DNA from: Arcobacter sp. FWKO B
GTDB taxonomy: Bacteria; Campylobacterota; Campylobacteria; Campylobacterales; Arcobacteraceae
Direction: 5' to 3'
Assembly: GCF_014844135.1 (NCBI RefSeq)
Contig: NZ_CP041403.1
Coordinates: 496,001 to 560,000, forward strand
Length of the DNA: 64,000 nucleotides
Shown: positions 18,579-39,019 of the stretch, piece after piece
Numbering within the stretch: position 1 is the first letter of the stretch
How the letters are laid out: each line of letters starts with the position of its first letter
Notes under the pieces: generated by a model
Told to the model about the DNA's origin: nothing
The model's database searches: none
Seen by the model: the letters and a program-made list of their open reading frames with translations, nothing else
Made by a program: the position numbers and the translations under genes

Positions 18579-19112
18579 ATGAAAAGCTTTGATATAAAAA
18601 ATCACCTTATGCCAAAACATATATTTTTATTACTTATGCCTTTTGTGATTTTACTTGGTTTGAATATGTACAAAACAGAGATAAAACTAGTGATAAAAAA
18701 TTTATTTATTGACTCAGTTAGCTCAAATATACAAAGGCTATCTTTTTCATCGATAGATTATAAAAATTTAGAAAATATTATGGTAAAAAATGAAGAATTA
18801 AGAAAATTATCAAAACCATATAATACAAATACCATCAAAGATATTGCAAAATCATTGCCACTTGTAGAAATAAAACCTAATATTGTACCAATGAATTTGA
18901 CAAATTATACTCAAGAAACACCAACACAAAGCGAACAAAAAACATACAAACTATCATCTATTATTATAGGTTCAAGTAAAATTGCTATTATAAATGATAT
19001 AATAGTAAGAGAAAATGATATAGTTCATGACGCACAAGTACTTGAAATACATAAAGATAAGGTTTTGATCAAAACTTCACAGGGGGATAGATGGCTAGAA
19101 ATATTCAGATAA
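18579..19112 (+). CDS. PilP/MshK-like pilus assembly protein
   Basis: This 177-residue protein has an N-terminal membrane segment (HIFLLLMPFVILLGLNMY) and an extended linker. Its C-terminal beta domain (KLSSIIIGSSKIAIINDI, then VLEIHKDKVLIKTSQGDRW) resembles the HR domain of PilP and GspC that contacts the secretin N-domains. It overlaps the secretin gene by 22 bases. The role is inferred from fold and order. Confidence 0.65.
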   Translation: MKSFDIKNHLMPKHIFLLLMPFVILLGLNMYKTEIKLVIKNLFIDSVSSNIQRLSFSSIDYKNLENIMVKNEELRKLSKPYNTNTIKDIAKSLPLVEIKPNIVPMNLTNYTQETPTQSEQKTYKLSSIIIGSSKIAIINDIIVRENDIVHDAQVLEIHKDKVLIKTSQGDRWLEIFR

Positions 19113-20296
19113 TTGTTTTATTTATAATACTTTTTTTGATACAGGGGTGTATGCCCAAAAATGATAGCTTTAAAAAAACAGATATCAAGCAAGAAGTAAC
19201 AAATATAAATCAATTGTCTGAAAATGATTTTTTAGGTGTAAATAATTTTACAAGGTCAACTCCTCCACCTCCACTAATACTACCAAGTCCATACAAAAAA
19301 CCTTCCCCTTTTGATGGTAAAACATTTAGTATATCTGCTGCAAATCAACCTATTACTAGGATATTGTATCTAATAGCACAAGATGCTGGAGTAAATCTTA
19401 TATTAGATCAAGATATGGATGAAAACCAACTAATTACGCTAAATATTTCTAATGCCCCTTTACAAAAAGTACTTGATCATGTCATGAACTTATCTGGTTG
19501 TTATTATACAATAGATGGCAATATGTTGCATGTCAAAGCAACTATGACAAAAATATTTGAAGTTCCTTATATAAAAACTCTTTCATCATACCGTTCTAGT
19601 GTAGGTGGTGATGTAATAAGTGGAAATAGTGGCTCATCTGGTCTCCAAGGGCAATTTACACTTAACTTTAATAATTCTGAAGAGGTAAATGATTTTTATA
19701 AACAACTTGAAAATAATATTCAAACAAAACTTTCTGAAAATGGGAAATATATTATAAATAAATTTACAGGTATTATTTCAGTTACGGATAAAAAAACCAA
19801 TGTTGATAATATTGAAGAAATCATAAATAATATCATAAGACTATCATCAAAAACCATAACTATAGAGGCAAAAATATTTGAAGTGATATTAAATGATTCA
19901 CACCAATTAGGTATTAGCTGGAGTAATATTTGGCATAATATTGCTAAAGGTGGAACACTTAGTGTATCACAGCCTCTTGGACTTACTGGAACAGCAGCTT
20001 CACTTGAACTAAATAGAAACAACTTAAATGTACTACTTCAAGCTATAAATACATCTGGAAGTATAGAAACCCTTTCAAATCCAAGAATAAGTGTTTCAAA
20101 TGGGCAAAGTGCTTTGATAAGTTCTGGTAAGATTGTCCCTTTTTGGGAAAAAGAGGTAACTTACTCAACTTCTACAACAACAAGTAATATACCAACTGTC
20201 ACATATCAAAGAAGGGATGTACTTGATGGAATATCCCTTGGTGTGACTCCTGTTGTTTTAACTAATGGCAATATACTTCCTAAGTTCAAATCATAA
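19091..20296 (+). pseudogene. mshL: MshL-like secretin, 5' fragment (split by IS30 element)
   Basis: This is the N-terminal 401 codons of an outer-membrane secretin lipoprotein. The lipobox is LIQGC (Cys ~20). Residues ~75-150 are a secretin/TonB short N-terminal domain (SAANQPITRILYLIAQDAGV), followed by the N1-like domain and the start of the secretin barrel (KTITIEAKIFEVILNDSHQLG, LSNPRISVSNGQSALISSG, GISLGVTPVV). The frame ends at a stop supplied by the inserted element, so the barrel is truncated and should not assemble. Deleting the IS and one AT copy joins it in frame to the fragment at 21375-21688. The junction would carry about 11 residues (LPKFKSSLEWA) that seem extra for the family, so the pre-insertion gene may already have been altered. 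Confidence 0.88.
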
Positions 20297-21372
20297 ATGC
20301 ATATTTTCTTAAAGTGAAGGTTATAGGAGGGTTAACAAATATTTTGTTATCCTTTTTCACCACAAAATAGGAAAATATTTATGAAGAAATTCACACAGTT
20401 AACCCTAAAAGAAAGATACCAGATATATGCTTATATTAAGGTTGGATATACTCAAAAAGAAATTGCTGATTGTTTAGGTACTTCACAATCTACAATTAGC
20501 AGAGAACTAAAAAGAAATAGTTCTGAAGGCGACTACAAACCTGAAGTTGCAGAACAGTTGAGTTTTTATAGACACAAATATAAAACCAAACATTTAAAGC
20601 TTACTAGAAAAGTTATGAACTACATCAAAGATAAGCTTAAAGAGGATTGGTCTCCTGAACAAATATCTGGAGTTATGAGATTGAAGAAACTGCCTTGGGT
20701 ATCCCATGAAACTATTTATCAGTATATTTACAAGAACAAATATCATGATGGGAAACTATATCTAAAACTTAGACATAAAAATAAAAAGTATCATAAAAGA
20801 GGAAATGAATATAACTCTAGAGGAGTTATTAAAAACAGAGTATCTATTGAACAAAGACCAAAAATTGTTGAACATAAAAAAAGAGTTGGTGACTTTGAGA
20901 TAGATACAGTAATAGGTAAAAATCATATTGGTGCATTAGTTACTATTGTTGATAGAGCATCAAAGTTTACATTAATCAAAAAAGTTGATTCTAAAAAAGC
21001 AGATATTGTATCTCAAGCTTTAATAGATATGCTTTATCCAATAAGAGAACTTACGCATACCATTACATCAGATAATGGCAAAGAGTTTGCATATCATGAA
21101 AATGTATCAAAAGCATTAGATGCAAAGTTTTACTTTGCAAATCCATATCACTCTTGGGAGAGAGGATTAAATGAACATACAAATGGTCTAATACGACAAT
21201 ATTTACCCAAACAGACAGATTTCACTAAAGTTAAAAGAAAGGAAATTAGAGAAATCCAAAACAGATTAAATAATAGACCTAGAAAATCACTTGGATATAA
21301 AACTCCATCTGAGGTTTTTTATGCTAAAGTAGCAAAAGTTTTAACAGCTTAATTTGGTGAAAATATGCATTT
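20295..21372 (+). mobile_element. IS30-family insertion sequence (about 1.08 kb)
   Basis: The ends are inverted repeats: AAATGCATATTTTC at the left (20295-20308) and its complement at the right (21359-21372). A 2-bp AT directly repeats at both borders (20293-20294 and 21373-21374) and is the probable target duplication. If the AT is counted in the repeats the match is 16 bp. The element carries one transposase gene. The open transposase frame and matching ends suggest a recent, possibly still mobile insertion. It sits inside the pilus secretin gene. Confidence 0.85.
20381..21352 (+). CDS. IS30 family transposase
   Basis: This is an intact 323-residue DDE transposase. The N-terminal helix-turn-helix reads LKERYQIYAYIKVGYTQKEI then LGTSQSTISRELKRN, the IS30 signature. 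Catalytic residues are Asp in GDFEIDTVIGK, Asp in TITSDNGKEF and Glu in RGLNEHTNGLIRQYLPK; the terminal RPRKSLGYKTPSEVF is also typical. No frameshift is visible. It is transcribed in the same direction as the host pilus operon, so it may be read from that promoter. Confidence 0.95.
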   Translation: MKKFTQLTLKERYQIYAYIKVGYTQKEIADCLGTSQSTISRELKRNSSEGDYKPEVAEQLSFYRHKYKTKHLKLTRKVMNYIKDKLKEDWSPEQISGVMRLKKLPWVSHETIYQYIYKNKYHDGKLYLKLRHKNKKYHKRGNEYNSRGVIKNRVSIEQRPKIVEHKKRVGDFEIDTVIGKNHIGALVTIVDRASKFTLIKKVDSKKADIVSQALIDMLYPIRELTHTITSDNGKEFAYHENVSKALDAKFYFANPYHSWERGLNEHTNGLIRQYLPKQTDFTKVKRKEIREIQNRLNNRPRKSLGYKTPSEVFYAKVAKVLTA

Positions 21373-21374
21373 AT

Positions 21375-21688
21375 CTCTTGAATGGGCGCTTTTAAATATC
21401 GTACCAGTATCTACTACTATAGAATCTATGGTAAATTTTTCTGACGGTGGGCAACAAGTTGCAACTGCACCTATTATAAATATAAAAGAAGCTGGAACTG
21501 TAATTCAAGCTAGAGAAAGTGAACTAGTTGTAATTGGAGGGCTTATCAATGAAACATATAAAAAAGATGAAGACTCAGTACCTGGGATTTCTAATCTTCC
21601 TGTAGTTGGTGGATTGTTTAAGAAAAAAAGCAATTCAAAAGAAAAAAGAGAGTTAATAATTTTATTAAAACTAACAGTAGATAATTAA
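21375..21688 (+). pseudogene. mshL: MshL-like secretin, 3' fragment
   Basis: This is the C-terminal part of the secretin barrel: LLNIVPVSTTIESM, VIQARESELVVIGGLI, then VPGISNLPVVGGLFKKKS and ELIILLKL, all standard GspD/PilQ family signatures. An ATG at 21365, lying in the IS right end, is in frame, but no ribosome binding site is evident and the product would lack the N-domains. It ends two bases before the next gene. See the 5' fragment at 19091. Confidence 0.88.
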
Positions 21689-28546: not shown

Positions 28547-31500
28547 TTACTGCTCTCCACCACCAAAAGAATTGTTATTATCCATTAAGCCACATTCAAG
28601 CATAATAGTAAGATTGCCATTTGATAATACATCAAAACAATTTCCAGTTTCGTCCGTTGTAGATGATTTTTCCCAACCTTGAGTATCACCTTCTATTGTA
28701 ACTTTATCATCACTATCACCTAGTATTGTCAGCATACCTGATGACTTATCTTGTAACATATCACTCAAGTTTAGAGTAAGATTATTTTGCTCACCTTGCG
28801 TCATATCTATAACTTCAAGATTTTCTATACTATCTAAATCAAGAACAACCTCTCCACTATCAAGAATATTTAAAGTATTTGTAGAATTTGGCATTTCTAT
28901 AACACCGTCTTGATTTACAGTAATTGTTGCTGTATCTCCACTACCTAACTCTGTAGATGTAACACTAGCTGTTATTGAAGATAACTCTTCATTTGGCATA
29001 GGTGCTGGTGATGTACTAAAGCTTACTACTGCATTACCATCTTCATCTACTGAAACCGTGCTTTGTACACCTTCAGGTAAACCACTCAATGACACATCAG
29101 ATAATACCTCACTACCATCCGTATCACTTAATCCAGCATTTACATTTACACTATAAGTGAATGTAGGAATTGACCATTCACCCTCATGTAAAACTGCTCC
29201 CATTGCAGATAATGCATCTTCATCAATTACAGTTTCAATTACATCTTTCATTATTGGTTCAACCTCAACCATAGGAGGAGTAGCTTCCAATGAATACCCA
29301 TCAATATGGATAGCTGAAATTCCAGTTGAAACTATAACTACACTTGCAAAATTTCCTTGTGCTTCATAAGTATTTGTACCATCTTGAAGTTTTGAACTAC
29401 CTACTTCATTTCCATTTGCATCATAAAATCTAACTTCCCCTGATGTGTTACCAGTTATTTTTACATCAACAGTAATTGTATTTGCAGTATTGCCATCTAA
29501 ATCAATAGTATAGCCATTATCCTGAGATGTATCATCATCTCTACCAAATACTTTACCAATTACAGCTTTTACTTTTCCAACAATATTTTTTATTAAACCA
29601 CCACTATTTCCGTTGTTTAGTATAACTTTGTCGTCGCTACTGATTGTTATAGGCTCACTAGTTTGATAAAATTTGCCATCAACCTCAACTATACCATTAG
29701 CACTATTTGCATCTATATCAACTTCTTGACCAACAACAACTTCTTTTGTAGGAACATCTGCAACTACTTCATAAGATACACTCTCTTCTATTGACATAGA
29801 CAATACTGGCATAGAAGCACTATCATCTATCTCCTCACTTAAGTCAAAATCACTATAAAGTTTTGTTATAGTAGCTTTATTGCTTAAAGGATCTGATGTA
29901 TCATTACTATTATTAAACCCACCTAAATGTTCACCTGTTTGTGTGTAAACTTCTGTACCCGCTTTTATAACATAACTTTCTACTGTCAATCCAGTTTGTG
30001 CCTCAATAGCATTTATGAATTTTTCTGGGTCGGAAGGATCTTTTACATCACCTTGATATTCATCAATTTTTAATGTCGTACCATCACTTAAATAATATTT
30101 CACATGTGATATACCATGTGGTAATGGTTGAGACTCTACTGGTGATTGAGTAACTTCTTCAGTTGGTACTTCAGTTGGAGTTTCTGTTGGAGCTTCTGTA
30201 ACTGCTTCTGTCGGTACTTCTGTTGGTGTTTCAGTCACTTCCTCAGTTGGTACTTCAGTCACTTCTTCTGTTGGAGCTTCTGTCGGCACTTCTGTAACCT
30301 CTTCAGTTGGCACTTCTGTTGGAGTTTCAGTCACTTCTTCAGTCGGTACTTCAGTTGGAGCTTCTGTAACTTCTTCAGTTGGTTGTTCAGTCACTTCTTC
30401 TGTTGGAGTTTCTGTTGGAGCTTCTGTCGGCACTTCTGTAACCTCTTCAGTTGGCACTTCTGTTGGTGTTTCAGTCACTTCCTCAGTCGGTACTTCTGTC
30501 GGAGTTTCTGTAACTTCTTCAGTCGGAGCTTCTGTAACCTCTTCTGTTGGCTGTTCAGTAACTTCTTCTGTTGGAGTTTCTGTCACTTCCTCAGTCGGTA
30601 CTTCAGTCGGAGTTTCTGTAACTTCTTCAGTTGGAGTTTCAGTTGGTTGTTCTGTCACTTCCTCAGTTGGTACTTCAGTCGGTGTTTCTGTAACTTCTTC
30701 AGTTGGTTGTTCAGTCACTTCTTCAGTTGGCACTTCTGTTGGTGTTTCAGTCACTTCCTCAGTTGGAGTTTCTGTTGGAGCTTCAGTCACTTCCTCAGTT
30801 GGTTGTTCAGTCACTTCTTCTGTTGGAGTTTCAGTCGGTGTTTCTGTAACTTCTTCAGTTGGCTGTTCAGTCACTTCTTCAGTCGGTACTTCAGTTGGTT
30901 GTTCAGTAACTTCTTCTGTTGGTATTTCAGTCGGAGCTTCTGTAACTGCTTCTGTCGGTACTTCAGTTGGTTGTTCAGTCACTTCTTCTGTTGGTACTTC
31001 AGTTGGAGTTTCAGTCACTTCTTCTGTTGGTGTTTCTGTTGGTGTTTCTGTAACTTCTTCTGTTGGAGTTTCAGTCGGTGTTTCTGTCACTTCCTCAGTT
31101 GGTACTTCAGTCACTTCTTCTGTTGGTATTTCTGTTGGTGTTTCTGTAACTTCTTCAGTCGGTTGTTCAGTCACTTCTTCAGTTGGCACTTCTGTTGGTG
31201 TTTCAGTCACTTCCTCAGTTGGAGTCTCTGTTGGAGCTTCAGTCACTTCCTCAGTTGGTTGTTCAGTAACTTCTTCTGTTGGTATTTCAGTCGGAGCTTC
31301 TGTAACTGCTTCTGTCGGTACTTCAGTTGGCTGTTCAGTCACTTCTTCTGTTGGAGCTTCTGTAACTTCTTCAGTTGGAGTTTCAGTTGGAGTTTCCGTT
31401 GAAGTTTGAATTGGAGTTTCTGTCGGTGCTGTTGCAAAAGTTTGTGTAGTTTCAGCCGTAGCTGTTGTAGTATTGATTCCACCTAAATTAGCTTCAAGAT

Positions 31501-31885
31501 CATTACCTTGTATATTTCTGCCACTCATATCAGTATCTAACTGCTCTGTATCAACATCTGCATTAACATCAAATGCATCAACTAACTGAGTATCTAGTGA
31601 AGCATCAACAACACCATCAATTACTGTTTGTGTAAAATCATTATCATTTATTTGGCTATCCAAAATGTCATAAGTGCCAGTTTGAAAGAAATTTTCATCA
31701 AGTCTTATTGTGGCTGGTCCTTGAACATCTATACTTCTTCCATTATCAAATAGTATCCTAGCAAACTCTCTAATAGTAAGTAAACCACCATTATCAGAGA
31801 TAACATCCCTATCTCTTAAAATTTCTTCACCACTATCTAAGGTCACCAAACCTCTTATATCTGTTATTTTTGCCACATTTGCCAT
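28547..31885 (-). CDS. LapA/BapA-like type I-secreted protein with mucin-like Thr/Pro/Glu repeats
   Basis: This is a 1112-residue acidic surface protein. Residues ~1-90 resemble the N-terminal retention module of LapA-type adhesins (AKITDIRGLVTLDSGEEI, then ARILFDNGRSIDVQGPATI). Residues ~153-582 are repeats of PTEEVTEAPTE-like units in which about one residue in three is Thr. The remainder has beta-rich domains (YTIDLDGNTANTITVDVKI; VNAGLSDTDGSEVLSDVSL) and ends in the LNLSDMLQ/LTILGDSDDKVTIEG pattern common at the C-terminal secretion end of such adhesins. No GGxGxD calcium repeats and no Sec signal peptide are seen. Two Cys lie near the C-terminus (GNCFDV, LECGL). The neighbouring TolC, ABC and HlyD-type genes should form its exporter. 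Confidence 0.82.
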   Translation of the reverse strand: MANVAKITDIRGLVTLDSGEEILRDRDVISDNGGLLTIREFARILFDNGRSIDVQGPATIRLDENFFQTGTYDILDSQINDNDFTQTVIDGVVDASLDTQLVDAFDVNADVDTEQLDTDMSGRNIQGNDLEANLGGINTTTATAETTQTFATAPTETPIQTSTETPTETPTEEVTEAPTEEVTEQPTEVPTEAVTEAPTEIPTEEVTEQPTEEVTEAPTETPTEEVTETPTEVPTEEVTEQPTEEVTETPTEIPTEEVTEVPTEEVTETPTETPTEEVTETPTETPTEEVTETPTEVPTEEVTEQPTEVPTEAVTEAPTEIPTEEVTEQPTEVPTEEVTEQPTEEVTETPTETPTEEVTEQPTEEVTEAPTETPTEEVTETPTEVPTEEVTEQPTEEVTETPTEVPTEEVTEQPTETPTEEVTETPTEVPTEEVTETPTEEVTEQPTEEVTEAPTEEVTETPTEVPTEEVTETPTEVPTEEVTEVPTEAPTETPTEEVTEQPTEEVTEAPTEVPTEEVTETPTEVPTEEVTEVPTEAPTEEVTEVPTEEVTETPTEVPTEAVTEAPTETPTEVPTEEVTQSPVESQPLPHGISHVKYYLSDGTTLKIDEYQGDVKDPSDPEKFINAIEAQTGLTVESYVIKAGTEVYTQTGEHLGGFNNSNDTSDPLSNKATITKLYSDFDLSEEIDDSASMPVLSMSIEESVSYEVVADVPTKEVVVGQEVDIDANSANGIVEVDGKFYQTSEPITISSDDKVILNNGNSGGLIKNIVGKVKAVIGKVFGRDDDTSQDNGYTIDLDGNTANTITVDVKITGNTSGEVRFYDANGNEVGSSKLQDGTNTYEAQGNFASVVIVSTGISAIHIDGYSLEATPPMVEVEPIMKDVIETVIDEDALSAMGAVLHEGEWSIPTFTYSVNVNAGLSDTDGSEVLSDVSLSGLPEGVQSTVSVDEDGNAVVSFSTSPAPMPNEELSSITASVTSTELGSGDTATITVNQDGVIEMPNSTNTLNILDSGEVVLDLDSIENLEVIDMTQGEQNNLTLNLSDMLQDKSSGMLTILGDSDDKVTIEGDTQGWEKSSTTDETGNCFDVLSNGNLTIMLECGLMDNNNSFGGGEQ
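30140..31429 (-). repeat. Thr/Pro/Glu coding repeat of the mucin-like protein
   Basis: About 1.3 kb of near-identical short units encodes strings such as EVPTEEVTETPTE. Codons vary (act/acc in the Thr, gtt/gta in the Val), so units differ more in DNA than in protein, which suggests selection on the protein. Repeat number may vary between strains. The long opposite-strand frame here is an artefact. Confidence 0.9.
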
Positions 31886-31971: not shown

Positions 31972-32526
31972 TTACTCTAGAAAAGATTCTTCAGATATAA
32001 AAAGCTCAGTATTTGGTATGTAATAATTGCCATTATAGTTATAGCTATCAATTTGAAAATATTTATTTACTCTATAAGATGATTCAATAACAGTCCCCTT
32101 TCGTAGCAAAAGAACCTCCTCACCTTTTTTATTAAATACTATAGAATTTCGTTTTATTTCAAATGGAACTCTATCAAAATCGTATGTTTTTTTATCAATG
32201 TTTGTTATAAAAAGATAATTATCAATATCTTTTACTACTTCCAAAGGTTCTACTTTGTTTGTACTTACAACTTCAGCACTGGCATATGATGAATCAAAAT
32301 CAATAGTCTCTTTAACAGGAAAGTCCATAGATTCTCTTTTTGCCCATGAAGTTGCCAAAACAGAAAATTCATCTACTTTTTGTTCTGTTTTTGTTATTCT
32401 AGCATCCAACTCTTGAAGCTTTTTGTTTATATCTAATACACTAATCAAATCATTTTGATTTGTAGTTGTTGATGAGCAACCAACAACAAAAAATACAAAA
32501 AATACAATTAAGTATATTTTCATCAA
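31972..32526 (-). CDS. lipoprotein of the type I secretion operon, unknown function
   Basis: This 184-residue protein has an N-terminal lipoprotein signal (IVFFVFFVVGC, Cys ~17), then a predicted coiled coil (LDINKKLQELDARITKTEQKVDEF read in pieces) and a C-terminal beta-rich region with RVPFEIKRNSIVFNKKGEE and FQIDSYNYNGNYYIPNTEL, which resembles an SH3-like fold but is not a firm match. It lies five bases after the ABC transporter gene. It may anchor or chaperone the secreted mucin-like protein at the envelope. I do not recognise a named family. Confidence 0.6.
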   Translation of the reverse strand: MMKIYLIVFFVFFVVGCSSTTTNQNDLISVLDINKKLQELDARITKTEQKVDEFSVLATSWAKRESMDFPVKETIDFDSSYASAEVVSTNKVEPLEVVKDIDNYLFITNIDKKTYDFDRVPFEIKRNSIVFNKKGEEVLLLRKGTVIESSYRVNKYFQIDSYNYNGNYYIPNTELFISEESFLE

Positions 32527-32531
32527 ACTCC

Positions 32532-34715
32532 CTATTTTCCGCTAAGTTTTTTTACAACTTCTTCTTTTTTACCATCTAATGCCACTTGTCCATCATCCAT
32601 TACTATTATACGATCAGCAAGGTCTAGTAATGTAGTTTTATGAGTGACTAAAATCATAGTTTTATCACTTAAATACTCTTTTATATTTTTGATAAATCTA
32701 GCTTCAGTTGATGAGTCCATAGCACTAGTAGGCTCATCTAGTAAAACTATAGGATAATCTTGTAAAATTGCTCTTGCGATAGCTATACTTTGTCTTTGTC
32801 CACCAGAAAGAAGTGCACCTCTTTCTCCAACAGGCATATCAAAGCCCTTTGGATGTTTATTAACAAAATCCATCACACCACTTATTTCAGCAGCTTTTAT
32901 TATCTTATCATCATCAATATATGGTAATCTATAAACAATATTTTCTTTAACAGTACCATTAAAGAGTAAAACATCTTGAGAAACATATGCTATATTCTTT
33001 CTAAGCTCAGTAGGATCAAGTTGTTTAATATCTATATTATCAATAAGAATAGCCCCTTCATTAGGAACATAAAGCGATAAAAGCAACTTATGAACAGTTG
33101 ATTTTCCAGAGCCTATTTTGCCAATAATAGCAACATGTTCACCTTCACTTATCTTAAATGATACATTATTTAATGTTGACTTATCAGAATTAGGATAACT
33201 AAAGCTAACGCTTTTAAATTCAACATTACCTCTATATTCAGGTCTAGCAACAAATTTCTTCCCTTGAGGATGCTCTACAGGCATATTCATTATATCATCT
33301 AACGCCTTGTAAGAAACTTTTGTATGGTGAAATGTGGACAGTAAACTTGCAACTTGCCCCATAGGTGAAATAGCCCTTGAAGAAATAATAACAACAGCTA
33401 TTAAAGCTCCCATCGACAACTCTTTTTCCCCTATCATATATGTACCTAATATGATTATAGCAACTGTATTTAACTGTAGCAAAAATGCTGTCACAGTTGT
33501 AATTGAAGCTGAAATAGTTTTAGAAGAAATACTCTTATCTGCAATTTGTGAAGTTGCTTCTTCCCATTTCCATTGAGAATATCCTGTTGCACCAAGAGAT
33601 TTTAATGTTTCTATAGAAGATAGTGACTCAATTAAAACACCATTTTTTAAAGAAGCAGCTTCATATGAATCTTTGATACTATTTTGTAATTTTTCTTTTG
33701 CATAATAAGTATATAAAATTATAAATAAAATTATTACAACTGGAACTATAACCAAAATCCCACCAATATAATAAATAGCAATCAAAAATATTATAATAAA
33801 AGGTAAATCTATTAGTAAAGATATTGTTGAAGCTGTAATAAAAGCTCTTATACTCTCAAATTCCTTTAAAATATTTGCCATAGAACCTACAGAACTAGGC
33901 ATTGATGACATTTTTAGATCAAGAACCCTCTCAAAGATAAGTGAAGATGCTATAATATCTGTCTTTTTACCAGCAGTTTCAAGAAAAAAAGTTCTCAAAA
34001 ATTTAAGAGCAACATCAATTCCATAAACAATAATGACCCCAATAGCAAGTATCCACAAAGTATCTTTTGCATCATTTGGTATAACTCTATCATATACATT
34101 CATAGTAAAAAGTGGTGTTGCCAAAACAAAAAGGTTAATAAGTAAAGAGGCTATAATAACATCTCTATAGGTATCTCTTACTATTTTCATAGTTCCCCAA
34201 AGCCAATGACTTTCTTTTACCCCACCAATAGCTGTTTGCTTATCATCAAATCTTAGTTCTCTTTTTAATAAAATTGCAAAACCATAATAATATTTATTTA
34301 GCTCATCTAAACTAACAAGACTCTCAACATCCTCAGCCTCAGGCAATAAAATCCTTGCATTTGCCATTTCATCATCAAAACCAAGCAATATACAAGCTCT
34401 AAGCTCATCTTGTGGTGTCTTACCATTTAAAAGGAGAATACAAGGTAAAACCAATGGATTGATATCTTGAAGTTTTGTTTTTAATACTTTTGTTTTAAAA
34501 CCAGCTTTTGATGCAGCTCTTGAAAAAAGTGATTTTGAACTGTATTTAGAAAATAAAATAGGGGTATTCTTACCTTCTTCCACTGGCAAACCAGCAATCA
34601 AAGACTCTTTTGAATATGGTCTTCCACTCATTTTACAAAAAATAGCCAAACAATCCAATATTGGATCGTCTTTGTACTCTTTTACTACTACCTCACCAAA
34701 TGTAATATGATGCAT
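32532..34715 (-). CDS. type I secretion ABC transporter (LapB/HlyB-like)
   Basis: This is a 727-residue exporter. Residues ~1-150 form a peptidase C39-like domain that lacks a recognisable catalytic Cys motif near the start (CLAIFCKMSGRPYSKESL), as in LapB/HlyB-type degenerate domains. Then come a six-helix membrane domain beginning ESHWLWGTMKIVRDTYRDV and ATPLFTMNVYDRVIPN, and an ATPase domain with Walker A GKIGSGKST, signature LLSGGQRQSIAIARA, Walker B VLLDEPTSAMD and H-loop VTHKT. It is second in the operon, 17 bases after the TolC-type gene. The expected substrate is the 1112-residue protein encoded downstream. Confidence 0.92.
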   Translation of the reverse strand: MHHITFGEVVVKEYKDDPILDCLAIFCKMSGRPYSKESLIAGLPVEEGKNTPILFSKYSSKSLFSRAASKAGFKTKVLKTKLQDINPLVLPCILLLNGKTPQDELRACILLGFDDEMANARILLPEAEDVESLVSLDELNKYYYGFAILLKRELRFDDKQTAIGGVKESHWLWGTMKIVRDTYRDVIIASLLINLFVLATPLFTMNVYDRVIPNDAKDTLWILAIGVIIVYGIDVALKFLRTFFLETAGKKTDIIASSLIFERVLDLKMSSMPSSVGSMANILKEFESIRAFITASTISLLIDLPFIIIFLIAIYYIGGILVIVPVVIILFIILYTYYAKEKLQNSIKDSYEAASLKNGVLIESLSSIETLKSLGATGYSQWKWEEATSQIADKSISSKTISASITTVTAFLLQLNTVAIIILGTYMIGEKELSMGALIAVVIISSRAISPMGQVASLLSTFHHTKVSYKALDDIMNMPVEHPQGKKFVARPEYRGNVEFKSVSFSYPNSDKSTLNNVSFKISEGEHVAIIGKIGSGKSTVHKLLLSLYVPNEGAILIDNIDIKQLDPTELRKNIAYVSQDVLLFNGTVKENIVYRLPYIDDDKIIKAAEISGVMDFVNKHPKGFDMPVGERGALLSGGQRQSIAIARAILQDYPIVLLDEPTSAMDSSTEARFIKNIKEYLSDKTMILVTHKTTLLDLADRIIVMDDGQVALDGKKEEVVKKLSGK

Positions 34716-34732: not shown

Positions 34733-36538
34733 TTAATTGGAATTATATTTTCTATATAGATTTTGCTTAAGAGCTATAATCTCAACTCTTGGCATACTTG
34801 CTTTTGCCTCAGGAGGTAATTTTTCTAATGCAGTACTTGCTTCTTCAAATGTATCAAAAATACCATACATGATTTTGTATATAGTCTTATCGGCTCCAAA
34901 TGCAAAACCAAAAGCATCATTTTGCAAACCATTTCTTAATAAAAAGCTATTAACCTCATCAATAGAACCAGAATTTGCAAGATTTATTGTATATTTTGTA
35001 GTAGGTGCACCTAAAAATCTATCTTTAAAAGAATCTATATTTTCTTGAATAACTTCTGTTGTAGTAGTATTTATGTCATTAACCGATGATTCATCTAAAT
35101 ACTCATATGAAACCTCATTTTCAACTAAAGGCAACACTTCAATTTCCAAACTTACATTTGCTTTTGATTTTTCCAAAACACTATAGTTTTGTTCTAAATA
35201 TTTACTCACATCTTTAAATAAATTCTCAATATTATTTGATTCATTGTTCCAGATTTTATCTCTTTTATCTATTAAAATCTCATCAGACAATACCCCAATA
35301 GCCTCAAGAACTCTATAATGTGCATACAATAAATCATATGTTGCTACAATAGTATTTCTCTTAGTAGAAATATAATCACTATGAGCATCTAGTACACTTG
35401 TCAAATCTTTTGTTCCCAAATCAAACTCATCAATTGTTGCATCCAAAACAAGTTGTCTAGTCTTAAGAAAATCACTTAATCTTCTAAGTTTTTCTTGATT
35501 AATTGTGTAGCTATTCCAAGCAAGTGCAAGTCTATTTGATATCTGTTGAGAACTTTTATCGATATAAATTCTTTTTTCACTTATATATTCAAGTGATTTT
35601 TTCTTTTTAGCAATATCTTTTCCACCATTATATAAGTTGTATGCTAATTCTATACCCATTTTATATTCATTGGAAACTATAGAGTTATCTTCTTTATACA
35701 TAGAATCATTTAGTTTATATTGACCAACCAAATTAACATTTGGCTGAAATGCTTTCAAATCCCTTTTGTATTCACTTATAGCTACATCAACATTTGTTAA
35801 AGCAACTAGCATTGATGGATGATACAAAAGGGCATAATCCAAAGCCTCTTCTTCACTATTTGGAACACTGTATGAAAATGAAGGCTTAACAAGCTCATTT
35901 ACATCAAATTTTGTCTGAATATGATTTCTTAATGTGGCTATAGCATCATTATAATTTAACTTATCTATAGCTAAATTTACACTACTTTCTTCAAGGCTAG
36001 CCTTTGAACTTTCAAATTCTAACTTGGTACCAAAACCTCTTTGTACTTTTCTAGTAATTTTATTATAAATATCTTCACTGATTTGATAAGACTCGCTTGA
36101 AGCACTTAGTAAATCTTTTGTTTTTAAAACATTTATATAACTCTCAGTATATCTCAACGCTAATAAATTTTGAGCCTCTTTAAGATAATATTCAGCACTT
36201 AAATATCTACTATTTTGCAGTTTTGCTTCATAACTAGCCTCTAATCCATCATAAATAGGTTGTCTAATATTTAATGAATATTCATCTGAGTTTGTATGTT
36301 CTCCACTTTTAGGAGTACGAGAATTTGAAGTTTTTTTTGATGTTTCTAAAGTACCTCTAAAATCAACACTTGGATATTTTAAACCTTTTGCAATATCAAT
36401 ATCATACTTAATTTTTTTAAGTTCATTAAGTCTTACTTGTACTTCTGGATCTTTTTGTAAAGTTCTTTCAAAGCCCTCCTTGAGTGTAAAACCAAAAAGA
36501 GAAGAAATAAATAACATAATAATTAAAAATATTTTCAT
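34733..36538 (-). CDS. TolC/LapE-type outer membrane channel with C-terminal SPOR domain
   Basis: This is a 601-residue protein starting MKIFLIIMLFISSLFG, a signal peptide. I chose this ATG over a farther upstream in-frame ATG (36706) because it gives a clean signal sequence and has a purine-rich ggggat upstream. Residues ~20-430 follow the TolC pattern with duplicated helical coiled coils (LNIRQPIYDGLEASYEAKLQ, LAYNLYNGGKDIAKKKKSLE, TKDLTSVLDAHSDYISTKRN). The last ~85 residues form a SPOR-like domain (KYTINLANSGSIDEVNSFL, YKIMYGIFDTFEEASTALEKL). SPOR domains bind denuded peptidoglycan, so the channel may be placed at sites of wall remodelling. It is first in the operon. Confidence 0.85.
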   Translation of the reverse strand: MKIFLIIMLFISSLFGFTLKEGFERTLQKDPEVQVRLNELKKIKYDIDIAKGLKYPSVDFRGTLETSKKTSNSRTPKSGEHTNSDEYSLNIRQPIYDGLEASYEAKLQNSRYLSAEYYLKEAQNLLALRYTESYINVLKTKDLLSASSESYQISEDIYNKITRKVQRGFGTKLEFESSKASLEESSVNLAIDKLNYNDAIATLRNHIQTKFDVNELVKPSFSYSVPNSEEEALDYALLYHPSMLVALTNVDVAISEYKRDLKAFQPNVNLVGQYKLNDSMYKEDNSIVSNEYKMGIELAYNLYNGGKDIAKKKKSLEYISEKRIYIDKSSQQISNRLALAWNSYTINQEKLRRLSDFLKTRQLVLDATIDEFDLGTKDLTSVLDAHSDYISTKRNTIVATYDLLYAHYRVLEAIGVLSDEILIDKRDKIWNNESNNIENLFKDVSKYLEQNYSVLEKSKANVSLEIEVLPLVENEVSYEYLDESSVNDINTTTTEVIQENIDSFKDRFLGAPTTKYTINLANSGSIDEVNSFLLRNGLQNDAFGFAFGADKTIYKIMYGIFDTFEEASTALEKLPPEAKASMPRVEIIALKQNLYRKYNSN

Positions 36539-36570
36539 TAACAAATCCCCAAATATACAAAATTTCAAAT

Positions 36571-36601
36571 ATTTTAACACATTTTCAACACATTTTAACA
36601 T
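36571..36601. repeat. three tandem 10-11-base repeats in divergent promoter
   Basis: ATTTTAACAC, ATTTTCAACAC and ATTTTAACAT follow one another directly between the divergent TolC-type and PAS-HlyD genes. Spacing of one helical turn suggests co-operative binding by a regulator, perhaps the LuxR-type protein encoded at 38411. This is inference from spacing only. Confidence 0.4.
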
Positions 36602-36608
36602 AAGATAG

Positions 36609-36616
36609 TATAAAAT
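36609..36616 (+). promoter_or_regulatory. candidate -10 element for PAS-HlyD gene
   Basis: TATAAAAT lies about 47 bases before the GTG start and directly after the tandem repeats, so a bound regulator would overlap the -35 region. Confidence 0.35.
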
Positions 36617-36662
36617 AACCTTGCATATAATAAAAAAATGAATGTTTTTAAAGGAAATTAGT

Positions 36663-38402
36663 GTGACTAAAACTTCAAGCAATGTTATAGATGACAAATT
36701 AACCAAAAGCTTTAGATTTCAAAACAGAGAATTGCTTGATAATTATGTTATTTTGGCAATAACTGATATTGATGGTATCATAAAACATGTAAGTACCAAT
36801 TTATGTCAAGTATTTGGATATAAGAATTCTGAGCTATTGGACAAGCCGTACTCATTTTTAATATCAAAAGATTCAATCAAAACATTTGAAATACAATTTA
36901 ATGATGCAAAAGTAAACAAAAGTATATGGAAAGGTGAGATGAAACACTCATCTAATAGTCAAAATGTAATTTGGACAGATACTATTATTACGCCATTATT
37001 TGATGATGACCATCAATTAGTTGGTTTTATACTTGCTAGTAATGACATTACTCAAGAAAAAAAATTAAAAAAAATCAATGAAGAAAATCTTTTAACAAAA
37101 AAATATGACAAAGGTATTTTAGAATTTATGCCAAGCTTAAGTGCAGCAGTGCTACTTAAAAATGCCAGCAGTTTACACAAAGTATTATGGATGATATCTT
37201 TTACAGTTATAGTTTCATTAATATGGGCATATTTCTCAAAAGTTGATGATATTGTTAAAACAACTGGTAAAATTATAACAACTACAAATATACAAACAAT
37301 TTCAACTATTTACTCAGGTACATTAGAAGAAATCTTTGTAAGAGAAGGTGCTGTTGTTAAAAAAGGAGATATATTATTTCAAATGTCAGTTGATGATTTC
37401 AAATCAGAGTATGAAAAGAAATTTTTGGAACATTTAGCTGCAAAGGCTAGAAGCCATAGATTAGAAGCCGAAGCTGAAGAAAGAAATATTTTTGTTGATC
37501 CTGAAATAATACAGTTAAACAAAACAATTATGGATAATGAAGTTATGCTTTTTGAAAGCAATAAACGAAAACTTGTTACAACTATCAAAATTTTACAAGA
37601 AAAACTAATACAAAAAGAAAACGAATTAAAAGAAAATGAAAACAAACTCATTATTTTGAAAAACAATCATTTACTGTTATCAAAGGAAATTGATATAAAA
37701 AAATCACTTGTAAAAGATAGAATTATCTCAGAAGTAGATTTTTTACAATTACAAAGACGATATAATGATACAGACCTTGAACTAAAAAAAACTCAAGCAG
37801 CAATTCCTAGTATCAAATCTTCTATTCAAGAGTTATACAAAAATATAGAAGAAGCAAAAGAAAAGTATAGAAATGATGCAAAGGTTGAGATAGTAAAAGT
37901 ATATTCAGAAATTCAAAAACTAAATGAGGATTTAAATCTATTAAAAGATAAAATAGAAAAATCAGCCATAAAATCACCTTCAGATGGTGTAGTCAATTTA
38001 ATTACAGTAAAAACAAAAGGTGAAGCAATATCTCCTGGACGAGTCTTAATGGAGATTATCCCAGAAACTGAATTTGTACTAGCTGAAGTAAAAGTTTCTC
38101 CAGCTGAAATTGGATTTTTATATATAGGACAAAGTGTTAGGGTAAAACTTCATGCTTATGACTTTAGTTTATATGGTGGATTAATGGGTGAAATAAATTA
38201 TATATCAGCTGATACAATTATGGATGAGAATACAAAAGCAGAGCACTACATAATACACATTAAATCAATGCAAAAATATGTTGGTGATAATGAAAATTTA
38301 ATAATACGACCTGGTATGACAGCAGATGCTGATATAATTACAGGTAAAAAAACTATATTAGATTATATTTTGCGACCTGTTTTAAAAACACTTCAAATCT
38401 AA
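36663..38402 (+). CDS. PAS domain fused to HlyD-type secretion adaptor
   Basis: This is a 579-residue fusion. Residues ~25-132 form a PAS fold with PAC end (ILAITDIDGIIKHVS, FGYKNSELLDKPYSFL, LVGFILASNDITQEKK). A membrane helix follows (~175-192, LWMISFTVIVSLIWAYF), then a membrane-fusion protein: lipoyl-like half motif (YSGTLEEIFVREGAVVKKGD), a long coiled coil, and the HlyD closing motif (IKSPSDGVVNLITVKTKGE, ILEIIPE-like LMEIIPETEFVLAEVKVSP). The PAS domain would lie in the cytoplasm and the adaptor in the periplasm. I prefer the GTG with aaagga seven bases upstream over the ATG at 36642, which has no ribosome binding site. Confidence 0.87.
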   Translation: MTKTSSNVIDDKLTKSFRFQNRELLDNYVILAITDIDGIIKHVSTNLCQVFGYKNSELLDKPYSFLISKDSIKTFEIQFNDAKVNKSIWKGEMKHSSNSQNVIWTDTIITPLFDDDHQLVGFILASNDITQEKKLKKINEENLLTKKYDKGILEFMPSLSAAVLLKNASSLHKVLWMISFTVIVSLIWAYFSKVDDIVKTTGKIITTTNIQTISTIYSGTLEEIFVREGAVVKKGDILFQMSVDDFKSEYEKKFLEHLAAKARSHRLEAEAEERNIFVDPEIIQLNKTIMDNEVMLFESNKRKLVTTIKILQEKLIQKENELKENENKLIILKNNHLLLSKEIDIKKSLVKDRIISEVDFLQLQRRYNDTDLELKKTQAAIPSIKSSIQELYKNIEEAKEKYRNDAKVEIVKVYSEIQKLNEDLNLLKDKIEKSAIKSPSDGVVNLITVKTKGEAISPGRVLMEIIPETEFVLAEVKVSPAEIGFLYIGQSVRVKLHAYDFSLYGGLMGEINYISADTIMDENTKAEHYIIHIKSMQKYVGDNENLIIRPGMTADADIITGKKTILDYILRPVLKTLQI

Positions 38403-38410
38403 GGGCTAAT

Positions 38411-39019
38411 ATGAAAGTAATAGTATATTCAAAATCAAACTTCGTTTCAAATGAGTTGAAACAAAATAGTTTATTTACTAATAGTTTATTAGAACTTGAC
38501 AACTTGAATGATATGTTAAAAATTATAAAAGAAGTTAAAGAAGATACAGTTATTGTATTGCATCATATAGATGATTTTCCAGCAGATACAACTACTATTA
38601 CAAATGTTGCAAAAAACAACCCACAATTATTTTTAATTGCATTATCAAATATACCTGAAAATATACAAGGATGTAGATTATTACAAATGGGATATAAAAG
38701 TTATTTACATTCATTTTCAAATATAGATATACTAAAAAGTGCTATAGATTCAGTAGCAAGTGGAAATATATATGTTTACCCTAAACTAATGGAATTTTTA
38801 GTTTCACAAGTACCTAGCTCTAAATTAAATGAAAAAAAACTTGACTCCCTTACGAAAAAAGAATTAGAAGTATTAGAATTAGTTGCAAAAGGTTATAGCA
38901 ACTCAAAAATTGCAACTAGTCTTGATATAGCTGAAATTACAGTAAAAAAACATATAAGCTCAATGTTTGAAAAGCTATGTGTAAGCGATAGGCTATCACT
39001 AGCGTTAATATTAAAATAA
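38411..39019 (+). CDS. LuxR-type regulator with pseudo-receiver domain
   Basis: This is a 202-residue protein. The C-terminus is a LuxR/FixJ helix-turn-helix (LTKKELEVLELVAKGYSN, IATSLDIAEITVKKHISSMFEKL). The N-terminal ~120 residues look like a response-regulator receiver, but the strand that should carry the phospho-acceptor Asp reads VIVLHHIDDFP and no switch Lys motif is clear. This resembles CsgD-type regulators of biofilm genes, whose receivers are also atypical. It lies eight bases after the PAS-HlyD gene and presumably controls the flanking secretion operon. That target is inferred. Confidence 0.75.
   Translation: MKVIVYSKSNFVSNELKQNSLFTNSLLELDNLNDMLKIIKEVKEDTVIVLHHIDDFPADTTTITNVAKNNPQLFLIALSNIPENIQGCRLLQMGYKSYLHSFSNIDILKSAIDSVASGNIYVYPKLMEFLVSQVPSSKLNEKKLDSLTKKELEVLELVAKGYSNSKIATSLDIAEITVKKHISSMFEKLCVSDRLSLALILK

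What the first reader, a model, noticed from the sequence alone, without database searches (positions are those of the whole stretch)
36663..38402. PAS sensor domain fused to a type I secretion adaptor
The HlyD-type membrane-fusion protein carries a full PAS/PAC module in front of its single membrane helix, placing a sensor on the cytosolic side of the exporter. Membrane-fusion proteins normally have only a short cytosolic tail here. The exporter may be gated by redox, ligand or light state, or the PAS domain may dock a partner. I know of no described example.
Basis: partly seen in the sequence, partly recalled or inferred. Interest (0 to 1): 0.75.

Follow-up and report, generated by a model that had tools for sequence, protein, structure and literature searches.

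The report
Sensor domain built into secretion adaptor
In a few Arcobacter relatives, the adaptor protein of the pump that exports a giant surface adhesin carries a sensor-type (PAS) domain on its inner-cell end; this arrangement is real, inherited and under selection, and suggests that export of the adhesin can respond directly to a signal inside the cell.

Summary
Confirmed: the ORF at 36642/36663-38402 (+) is one unbroken 586/579-aa protein, a PAS domain (PF13426) joined through a helix to a complete type I secretion adaptor (TIGR01843). It is not a merged-gene artefact. Twelve Arcobacteraceae genomes from 6 genera carry it, plus one 5-kb contig binned to a Desulfuromonadaceae MAG. The adaptor parts form one clade (98/95), so the PAS was probably gained once, and it is under strong purifying selection. 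All 13 genes are followed by the same pseudo-receiver LuxR gene; 12 of 13 lie beside an LssB-type ABC gene.

The cluster is a Lap-type giant-adhesin exporter. It differs from sister exporters, including one in this genome: no LapD/LapG genes seen beside it, a SPOR-tailed rather than OmpA-tailed TolC, and adhesins without a LapG-type site (0/10 versus 21/26). Instead they carry a [ST]EQL motif after the retention-type module (10/10 versus 0/26).

Best reading: a Lap-type exporter with a cytosolic sensory input built into its adaptor. Blue-light (LOV) and FixL-type haem sensing are unlikely; ligand and gating are unproven. I found no published example. New variant of a known kind.

The parts
36663..38402 (+). 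PAS-HlyD adaptor gene (likely GTG start 36663; ATG 36642 also in frame)
36747..37055 (+). PAS core, residues 36-138 (numbering from ATG 36642)
   Evidence: Pfam PAS_9 8.8e-13; AF2 model and Foldseek
37056..37181 (+). helical linker and the usual adaptor cytosolic tail ([LM][ED]FM.S..A[VI]L), residues 139-180
   Evidence: alignments and tree input; helix in model
37182..37238 (+). single transmembrane helix, residues 181-199
   Evidence: hydropathy peak 1.94
37239..38399 (+). periplasmic adaptor part: lipoyl, coiled-coil hairpin, beta-barrel
   Evidence: TIGR01843 8e-100; PDB matches 8dck, 5nen; 5nen, 5c22
38411..39019 (+). LuxR-type regulator with a pseudo-receiver domain, 8 bp downstream
   Evidence: GerE 1.6e-17; receiver lacks the beta-1 acidic pair and apparently the phospho-Asp; next to all 13 PAS-HlyD genes
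36539..36662 (.). divergent intergenic region between tolC-SPOR and the adaptor gene
   Evidence: promoter-like matches not clearly above chance
34733..36538 (-). TolC-family outer membrane channel with C-terminal SPOR-like domain (likely ATG at 36538; ORF opens at 36706)
   Evidence: OEP 4e-40; SPOR 9.4e-4, just under cut-off; SPOR over cut-off in 6 orthologs
32532..34715 (-). LssB/LapB-type ABC exporter
   Evidence: TIGR03375 9e-271
31972..32526 (-). small lipoprotein, seen only in the window's own subclade
28547..31885 (-). LapA-like adhesin: N-terminal retention-type module, PT-rich repeats, T1SS-type C-terminus
   Evidence: PT repeat 2.5e-24; tandem arrays; N- and C-terminal homologs
31532..31549 (-). 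TEQLDT motif of the adhesin (residues 113-118), in the region where sister adhesins carry the LapG-type site

Best explanation
This is a Lap-type type I secretion system for a surface-retained giant adhesin whose adaptor gained a cytosolic PAS domain, probably once, in Arcobacteraceae. Shown: the fusion, its conservation, its gene cluster, and the missing LapG-type site in the partner adhesin. Inferred: the PAS domains sit in the cytosol around the ABC exporter, sense a cytosolic signal (probably redox or a small metabolite), and pass their state through the PAS-to-membrane helix. In HlyD the cytosolic N-terminus is needed for TolC recruitment and ATPase activation, so a PAS there could license or block adhesin export. 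In LapD/LapG systems c-di-GMP instead controls release of the adhesin after export. Because this adhesin lacks a LapG-type site and no LapD/LapG genes are seen in the cluster, control is proposed to have moved from release to export.
For: PAS plus a complete adaptor. One clade, 98/95 support. Purifying selection on PAS, linker and tail. The normal cytosolic tail is kept between PAS and membrane, so the PAS was added to a working adaptor. Sequence and fold neighbours include the FAD redox sensors MmoS, Aer and NifL, and the best PAS matches I read in related genomes belong to kinase-like and GGDEF-like proteins (identified by eye). LapG-type site absent in 10/10 partner adhesins, present in 21/26 sister adhesins. 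No LapD/LapG homolog in the sequence examined around any of 13 PAS-HlyD genes, while the same genome has a LapD/LapG exporter. HlyD lacking its cytosolic N-terminus fails to recruit TolC or activate HlyB (PMC4446572).
Against: No ligand, cofactor or gating was shown. The Aer RHPD motif is missing and no known cofactor signature is complete. In the two divergent orthologs the PAS has drifted (27% identity) and the WKGE motif is lost. Absence of linked LapG is not by itself distinctive: most sister clusters sampled only by LuxR linkage also show none within the fetched stretch. Counts ignore shared ancestry.
Confidence: 0.5

Rival explanations
1. The PAS is a cofactor-free docking or oligomerisation module that stabilises the adaptor ring or recruits the adhesin or ABC subunit; it does not sense anything.
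For: No complete cofactor signature; an invariant N-cap (FQNRELLD) and linker specific to this family look like an interface; the WKGE motif is lost in the divergent pair; PAS domains often dimerise (general knowledge).
Against: The PAS core is also well conserved (71% mean pairwise identity in the ten close orthologs, W96 invariant), and its nearest relatives are signalling PAS domains.
Confidence: 0.28
2. The PAS tethers the LuxR-type pseudo-receiver protein encoded next to it, coupling exporter assembly to transcription of the cluster.
For: LuxR gene immediately downstream in 13/13; its receiver probably cannot be phosphorylated in the usual way, so it needs another input.
Against: The same LuxR type sits beside PAS-less adaptors in many sister clusters, so the gene link is not specific to the PAS.
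Confidence: 0.14
3. The fusion is a neutral or decaying addition with no function.
For: PAS drifted in the divergent pair.
Against: dN/dS 0.03-0.12 and retention across 13 loci.
Confidence: 0.05

Closest known systems
LapBCE/LapA with LapD/LapG (Pseudomonas fluorescens; PMC6890996, PMC13090378)
   Same: LssB/LapB-type ABC, HlyD-type adaptor, TolC-like channel, adhesin with an N-terminal retention-type module
   Different: PAS on the adaptor; no LapD/LapG seen in the cluster; adhesin without the LapG-type site but with a [ST]EQL motif; SPOR on TolC
The PAS-less T1SS of the same genome (L031)
   Same: Same gene set: ABC, adaptor, TolC, LuxR, adhesin
   Different: Adaptor has only the short tail; TolC ends in OmpA; LapG and LapD inside the cluster; adhesin has ETAAG
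DvhD/DvhG system of Desulfovibrio vulgaris (PMC13090378)
   Same: A Lap-like adhesin system that contains a cytosolic PAS domain
   Different: There the PAS is in the c-di-GMP receptor DvhD, not in the exporter's adaptor, and a LapG-like protease is present
E. coli HlyD and Serratia LipC adaptors (5c21, 5nen)
   Same: Adaptor fold and topology
   Different: No PAS
MmoS, Aer and NifL FAD-type PAS domains (3ewk, 8dik, 2gj3)
   Same: Among the closest PAS structures by sequence or fold; the Trp of the W.GE region is kept
   Different: Aer RHPD motif absent; FAD binding not shown

Membership tests
Type I secretion adaptor (HlyD family, TIGR01843) | Full-length profile match above the curated cut-off | tested here: met
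   334.7 bits versus cut-off 208.65, residues 180-585
Type I secretion adaptor (HlyD family, TIGR01843) | Cognate ABC exporter and TolC-family channel encoded nearby | tested here: met
   LssB and TolC genes adjacent in the window; both in 11 of 13 PAS-HlyD clusters as fetched, LssB in 12 (L072 shows LssB only, at its contig edge; L063 shows neither in the stretch fetched)
PAS domain | PAS profile above cut-off and PAS fold | tested here: met
   PAS_9 48.9 bits versus 27; AF2 and Foldseek
LOV photoreceptor | Photoactive Cys in the NCRFLQ-type motif | tested here: not met
   Position reads KPYSFLI or a variant without Cys in all 12
Aer/MmoS-type FAD redox PAS | FAD bound; Aer-type RHPD motif | tested here: inconclusive
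   RHPD absent, Trp kept in the main clade; binding itself not testable
FixL/DosP-type haem PAS | Proximal His on the F-alpha helix | tested here: not met
   No His in residues 76-95 in any of 12
LapD/LapG-controlled adhesin system | LapG (PF06035) and LapD in the cluster | tested here: not met
   Absent from the sequence examined around all 13 PAS-HlyD genes; several of these stretches are cut by contig or fetch limits
LapD/LapG-controlled adhesin system | LapG-type site after the retention module of the adhesin | tested here: not met
   0/10 versus 21/26 in sisters; pattern partly chosen from the sister set
LapA-type retained adhesin | N-terminal retention module | tested here: inconclusive
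   Aligns end to end with the sister module, but weakly (hhalign E 0.005, probability 7%)
SPOR-domain protein (TolC partner) | PF05036 above cut-off | tested here: inconclusive
   Window protein 19.9 bits versus 21; 6 of 9 main-clade TolCs over cut-off

The most novel reading that the evidence does not exclude
A class of giant-adhesin secretion system that left LapD/LapG control: the exporter's own adaptor senses a cytosolic signal through a PAS domain, and the adhesin's LapG site was replaced by a [ST]EQL[DNT][ST] element handled by an unknown protease or anchor.
Probability: 0.25. Interest if true: 0.8.

Novelty: new variant of a known kind. Interest (0 to 1): 0.58.

Why it matters
Known control of Lap-type adhesins acts by c-di-GMP on release after export, or on transcription. 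A sensor inside the adaptor would be direct, post-translational control of type I secretion itself, and would make the poorly understood role of the adaptor's cytosolic end testable. The window's genome offers a natural comparison, since it holds both the PAS-type and a LapD/LapG-type exporter.

Tried and rejected
Sequencing error or gene merger: rejected. LOV and FixL-type haem: rejected on sequence. Linked LapG absence as a discriminator: weak. 18/47 PAS-less LuxR clusters versus 0/13 gives p 0.006, but 12 of the 47 were fetched because LapG was near, so it is not used as proof. LuxR as a PAS-specific partner: weakened by its presence beside PAS-less adaptors. The Desulfuromonadaceae hit (L072) may be misbinned or transferred: 45% GC against 52% and 61% in two other loci of that MAG, a 5-kb low-coverage contig, and none in the 276 other genomes of that class. 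Full-length AF2 was poor on the PAS with 5 sequences; a PAS-only job was better. Plasmid and viral-contig searches gave no PAS-HlyD.

Full report
The window encodes one unbroken protein with a PAS domain, a helical linker, one membrane helix and a full HlyD-type adaptor. GTG 36663, with AAAGGAA just upstream, is the likelier start.

It is not an artefact. Within the family searched (104 genomes), 12 genomes of 6 genera carry the fusion: ten close orthologs and a divergent pair, G015 and G097. A scan of one genome per species with two family-specific peptides named some of these (Aliarcobacter sp. and Arcobacter sp. MAGs, hence the family name) and added one 5-kb contig binned to a Desulfuromonadaceae MAG (L072). 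That contig may be misbinned or transferred. In 397 genomes drawn from the class the fusion appears only in this family. In a maximum-likelihood tree of the adaptor part alone, the 13 fused proteins are one group (98/95; 1 change, no shuffle of 500 as low). Midpoint rooting is a convention, so the direction of change is inferred. The PAS region has dN/dS of 0.03-0.12, similar to or lower than the adaptor region in most pairs.

Many PAS-less adaptors of this type keep a tail motif of the [YF]M.SLS.A kind directly before the membrane helix, and the PAS-type proteins keep it too. The PAS was therefore added in front of an intact adaptor.

Surroundings. The gene lies head to head with a TolC-family channel gene followed by an LssB-type ABC gene, a lipoprotein gene and an adhesin gene, and is followed by a LuxR-type gene. 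Across the 13 clusters the LuxR gene is always the next gene downstream. The ABC gene is seen in 12 and the TolC gene in 11; L063 shows neither in the fetched stretch, and L072 is cut at its contig end. The LuxR receiver lacks the acidic pair and apparently the phosphorylated Asp. The main-clade TolC carries a SPOR match in 8 of 9 proteins examined, 6 above the Pfam cut-off.

Contrast in the same genome. A second exporter at G000:C1 about 194.0-207.5 kb has a PAS-less adaptor, a TolC ending in OmpA, LapG (PF06035) and LapD (LapD_MoxY_N, GGDEF, EAL). Its adhesin has ETAAG at residue 118.

Adhesin signatures. I took adhesins of sister clusters as the retention-type ORF directly downstream of the LuxR gene. 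Between residues 90 and 180 a LapG-type site (ET[AT][AE]G or [TPA]AAG) occurs in 21 of 26 sister adhesins and 0 of 10 PAS-type adhesins (Fisher 1.2e-5). A [ST]EQL motif occurs in 10 of 10 PAS-type and 0 of 26 sister adhesins (3.9e-9). Both patterns were defined after viewing these sequences, and rows are related, so the p-values overstate the evidence. ETAEG as a LapG site is my inference from its position in adhesins encoded beside LapG genes. The PAS-type and sister retention modules align end to end but weakly (E 0.005).

Linked LapG genes are a weaker marker. None was found by homology in the sequence examined around 13 PAS-type genes, but several stretches are short. Among 47 PAS-less LuxR-linked clusters 18 show it, and 12 of those 47 were fetched for having it. 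G015 and G097 have no LapG match anywhere in their assemblies.

The PAS itself. Its AF2 model is confident in the core. Nearest structures are PAS domains including MmoS, NifL and Aer (FAD) and LOV domains. The LOV Cys and a FixL-type His are absent in all 12, and the Aer RHPD motif is replaced. Cofactor identity is therefore open.

Mechanism. Reviews state that the cytosolic N-terminus of HlyD is needed to recruit TolC and activate HlyB (PMC4446572) and that it binds the substrate signal (PMC13328181). A PAS placed there is well positioned to control export. Lap-type systems are otherwise controlled at release through LapD and LapG (PMC6890996; PMC13090378). The latter paper also describes a PAS, but in the receptor DvhD. 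I infer that here control was moved to the exporter; docking and LuxR tethering remain live rivals.

Limits. Literature searched was open-access PMC only. Proteobacterial genomes were covered only by the two-peptide scan, which finds close relatives. No structure of the complex, no binding and no phenotype was tested.

Noticed in passing
window 19091-21688 (+): A secretin gene is split: 19091-20296 matches the first part of PF00263 and 21365-21688 the rest, with an IS30-like transposase (HTH_38, rve) between them at 20381-21352 and imperfect 35-nt inverted repeats at 20285-20319 and 21348-21382.
   Followed up: partly
window 31532-31549 (-): [ST]EQL[DNT][ST] motif after the retention-type module, in all 10 PAS-type adhesins and none of 26 sisters; possible cleavage or anchoring element.
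   Followed up: partly
L112-L119 and similar sister clusters: LapG-linked adhesins carry ETAEG or ETTEG where others carry ETAAG, perhaps a variant LapG site of this family.
   Followed up: no
window 30140-31420: PT-rich tandem repeats of 12-108 nt periods in the adhesin gene; they also open a spurious 418-aa frame on the + strand.
   Followed up: no
L063 (G066): PAS-HlyD and LuxR genes without ABC or TolC genes in the fetched stretch; unrelated ORFs, one integrase-like by eye, lie upstream, suggesting an insertion that separated the cluster.
   Followed up: no
L028 and L069: The divergent PAS-HlyD clusters contain a histidine kinase-like gene and come from genomes without any LapG match.
   Followed up: no
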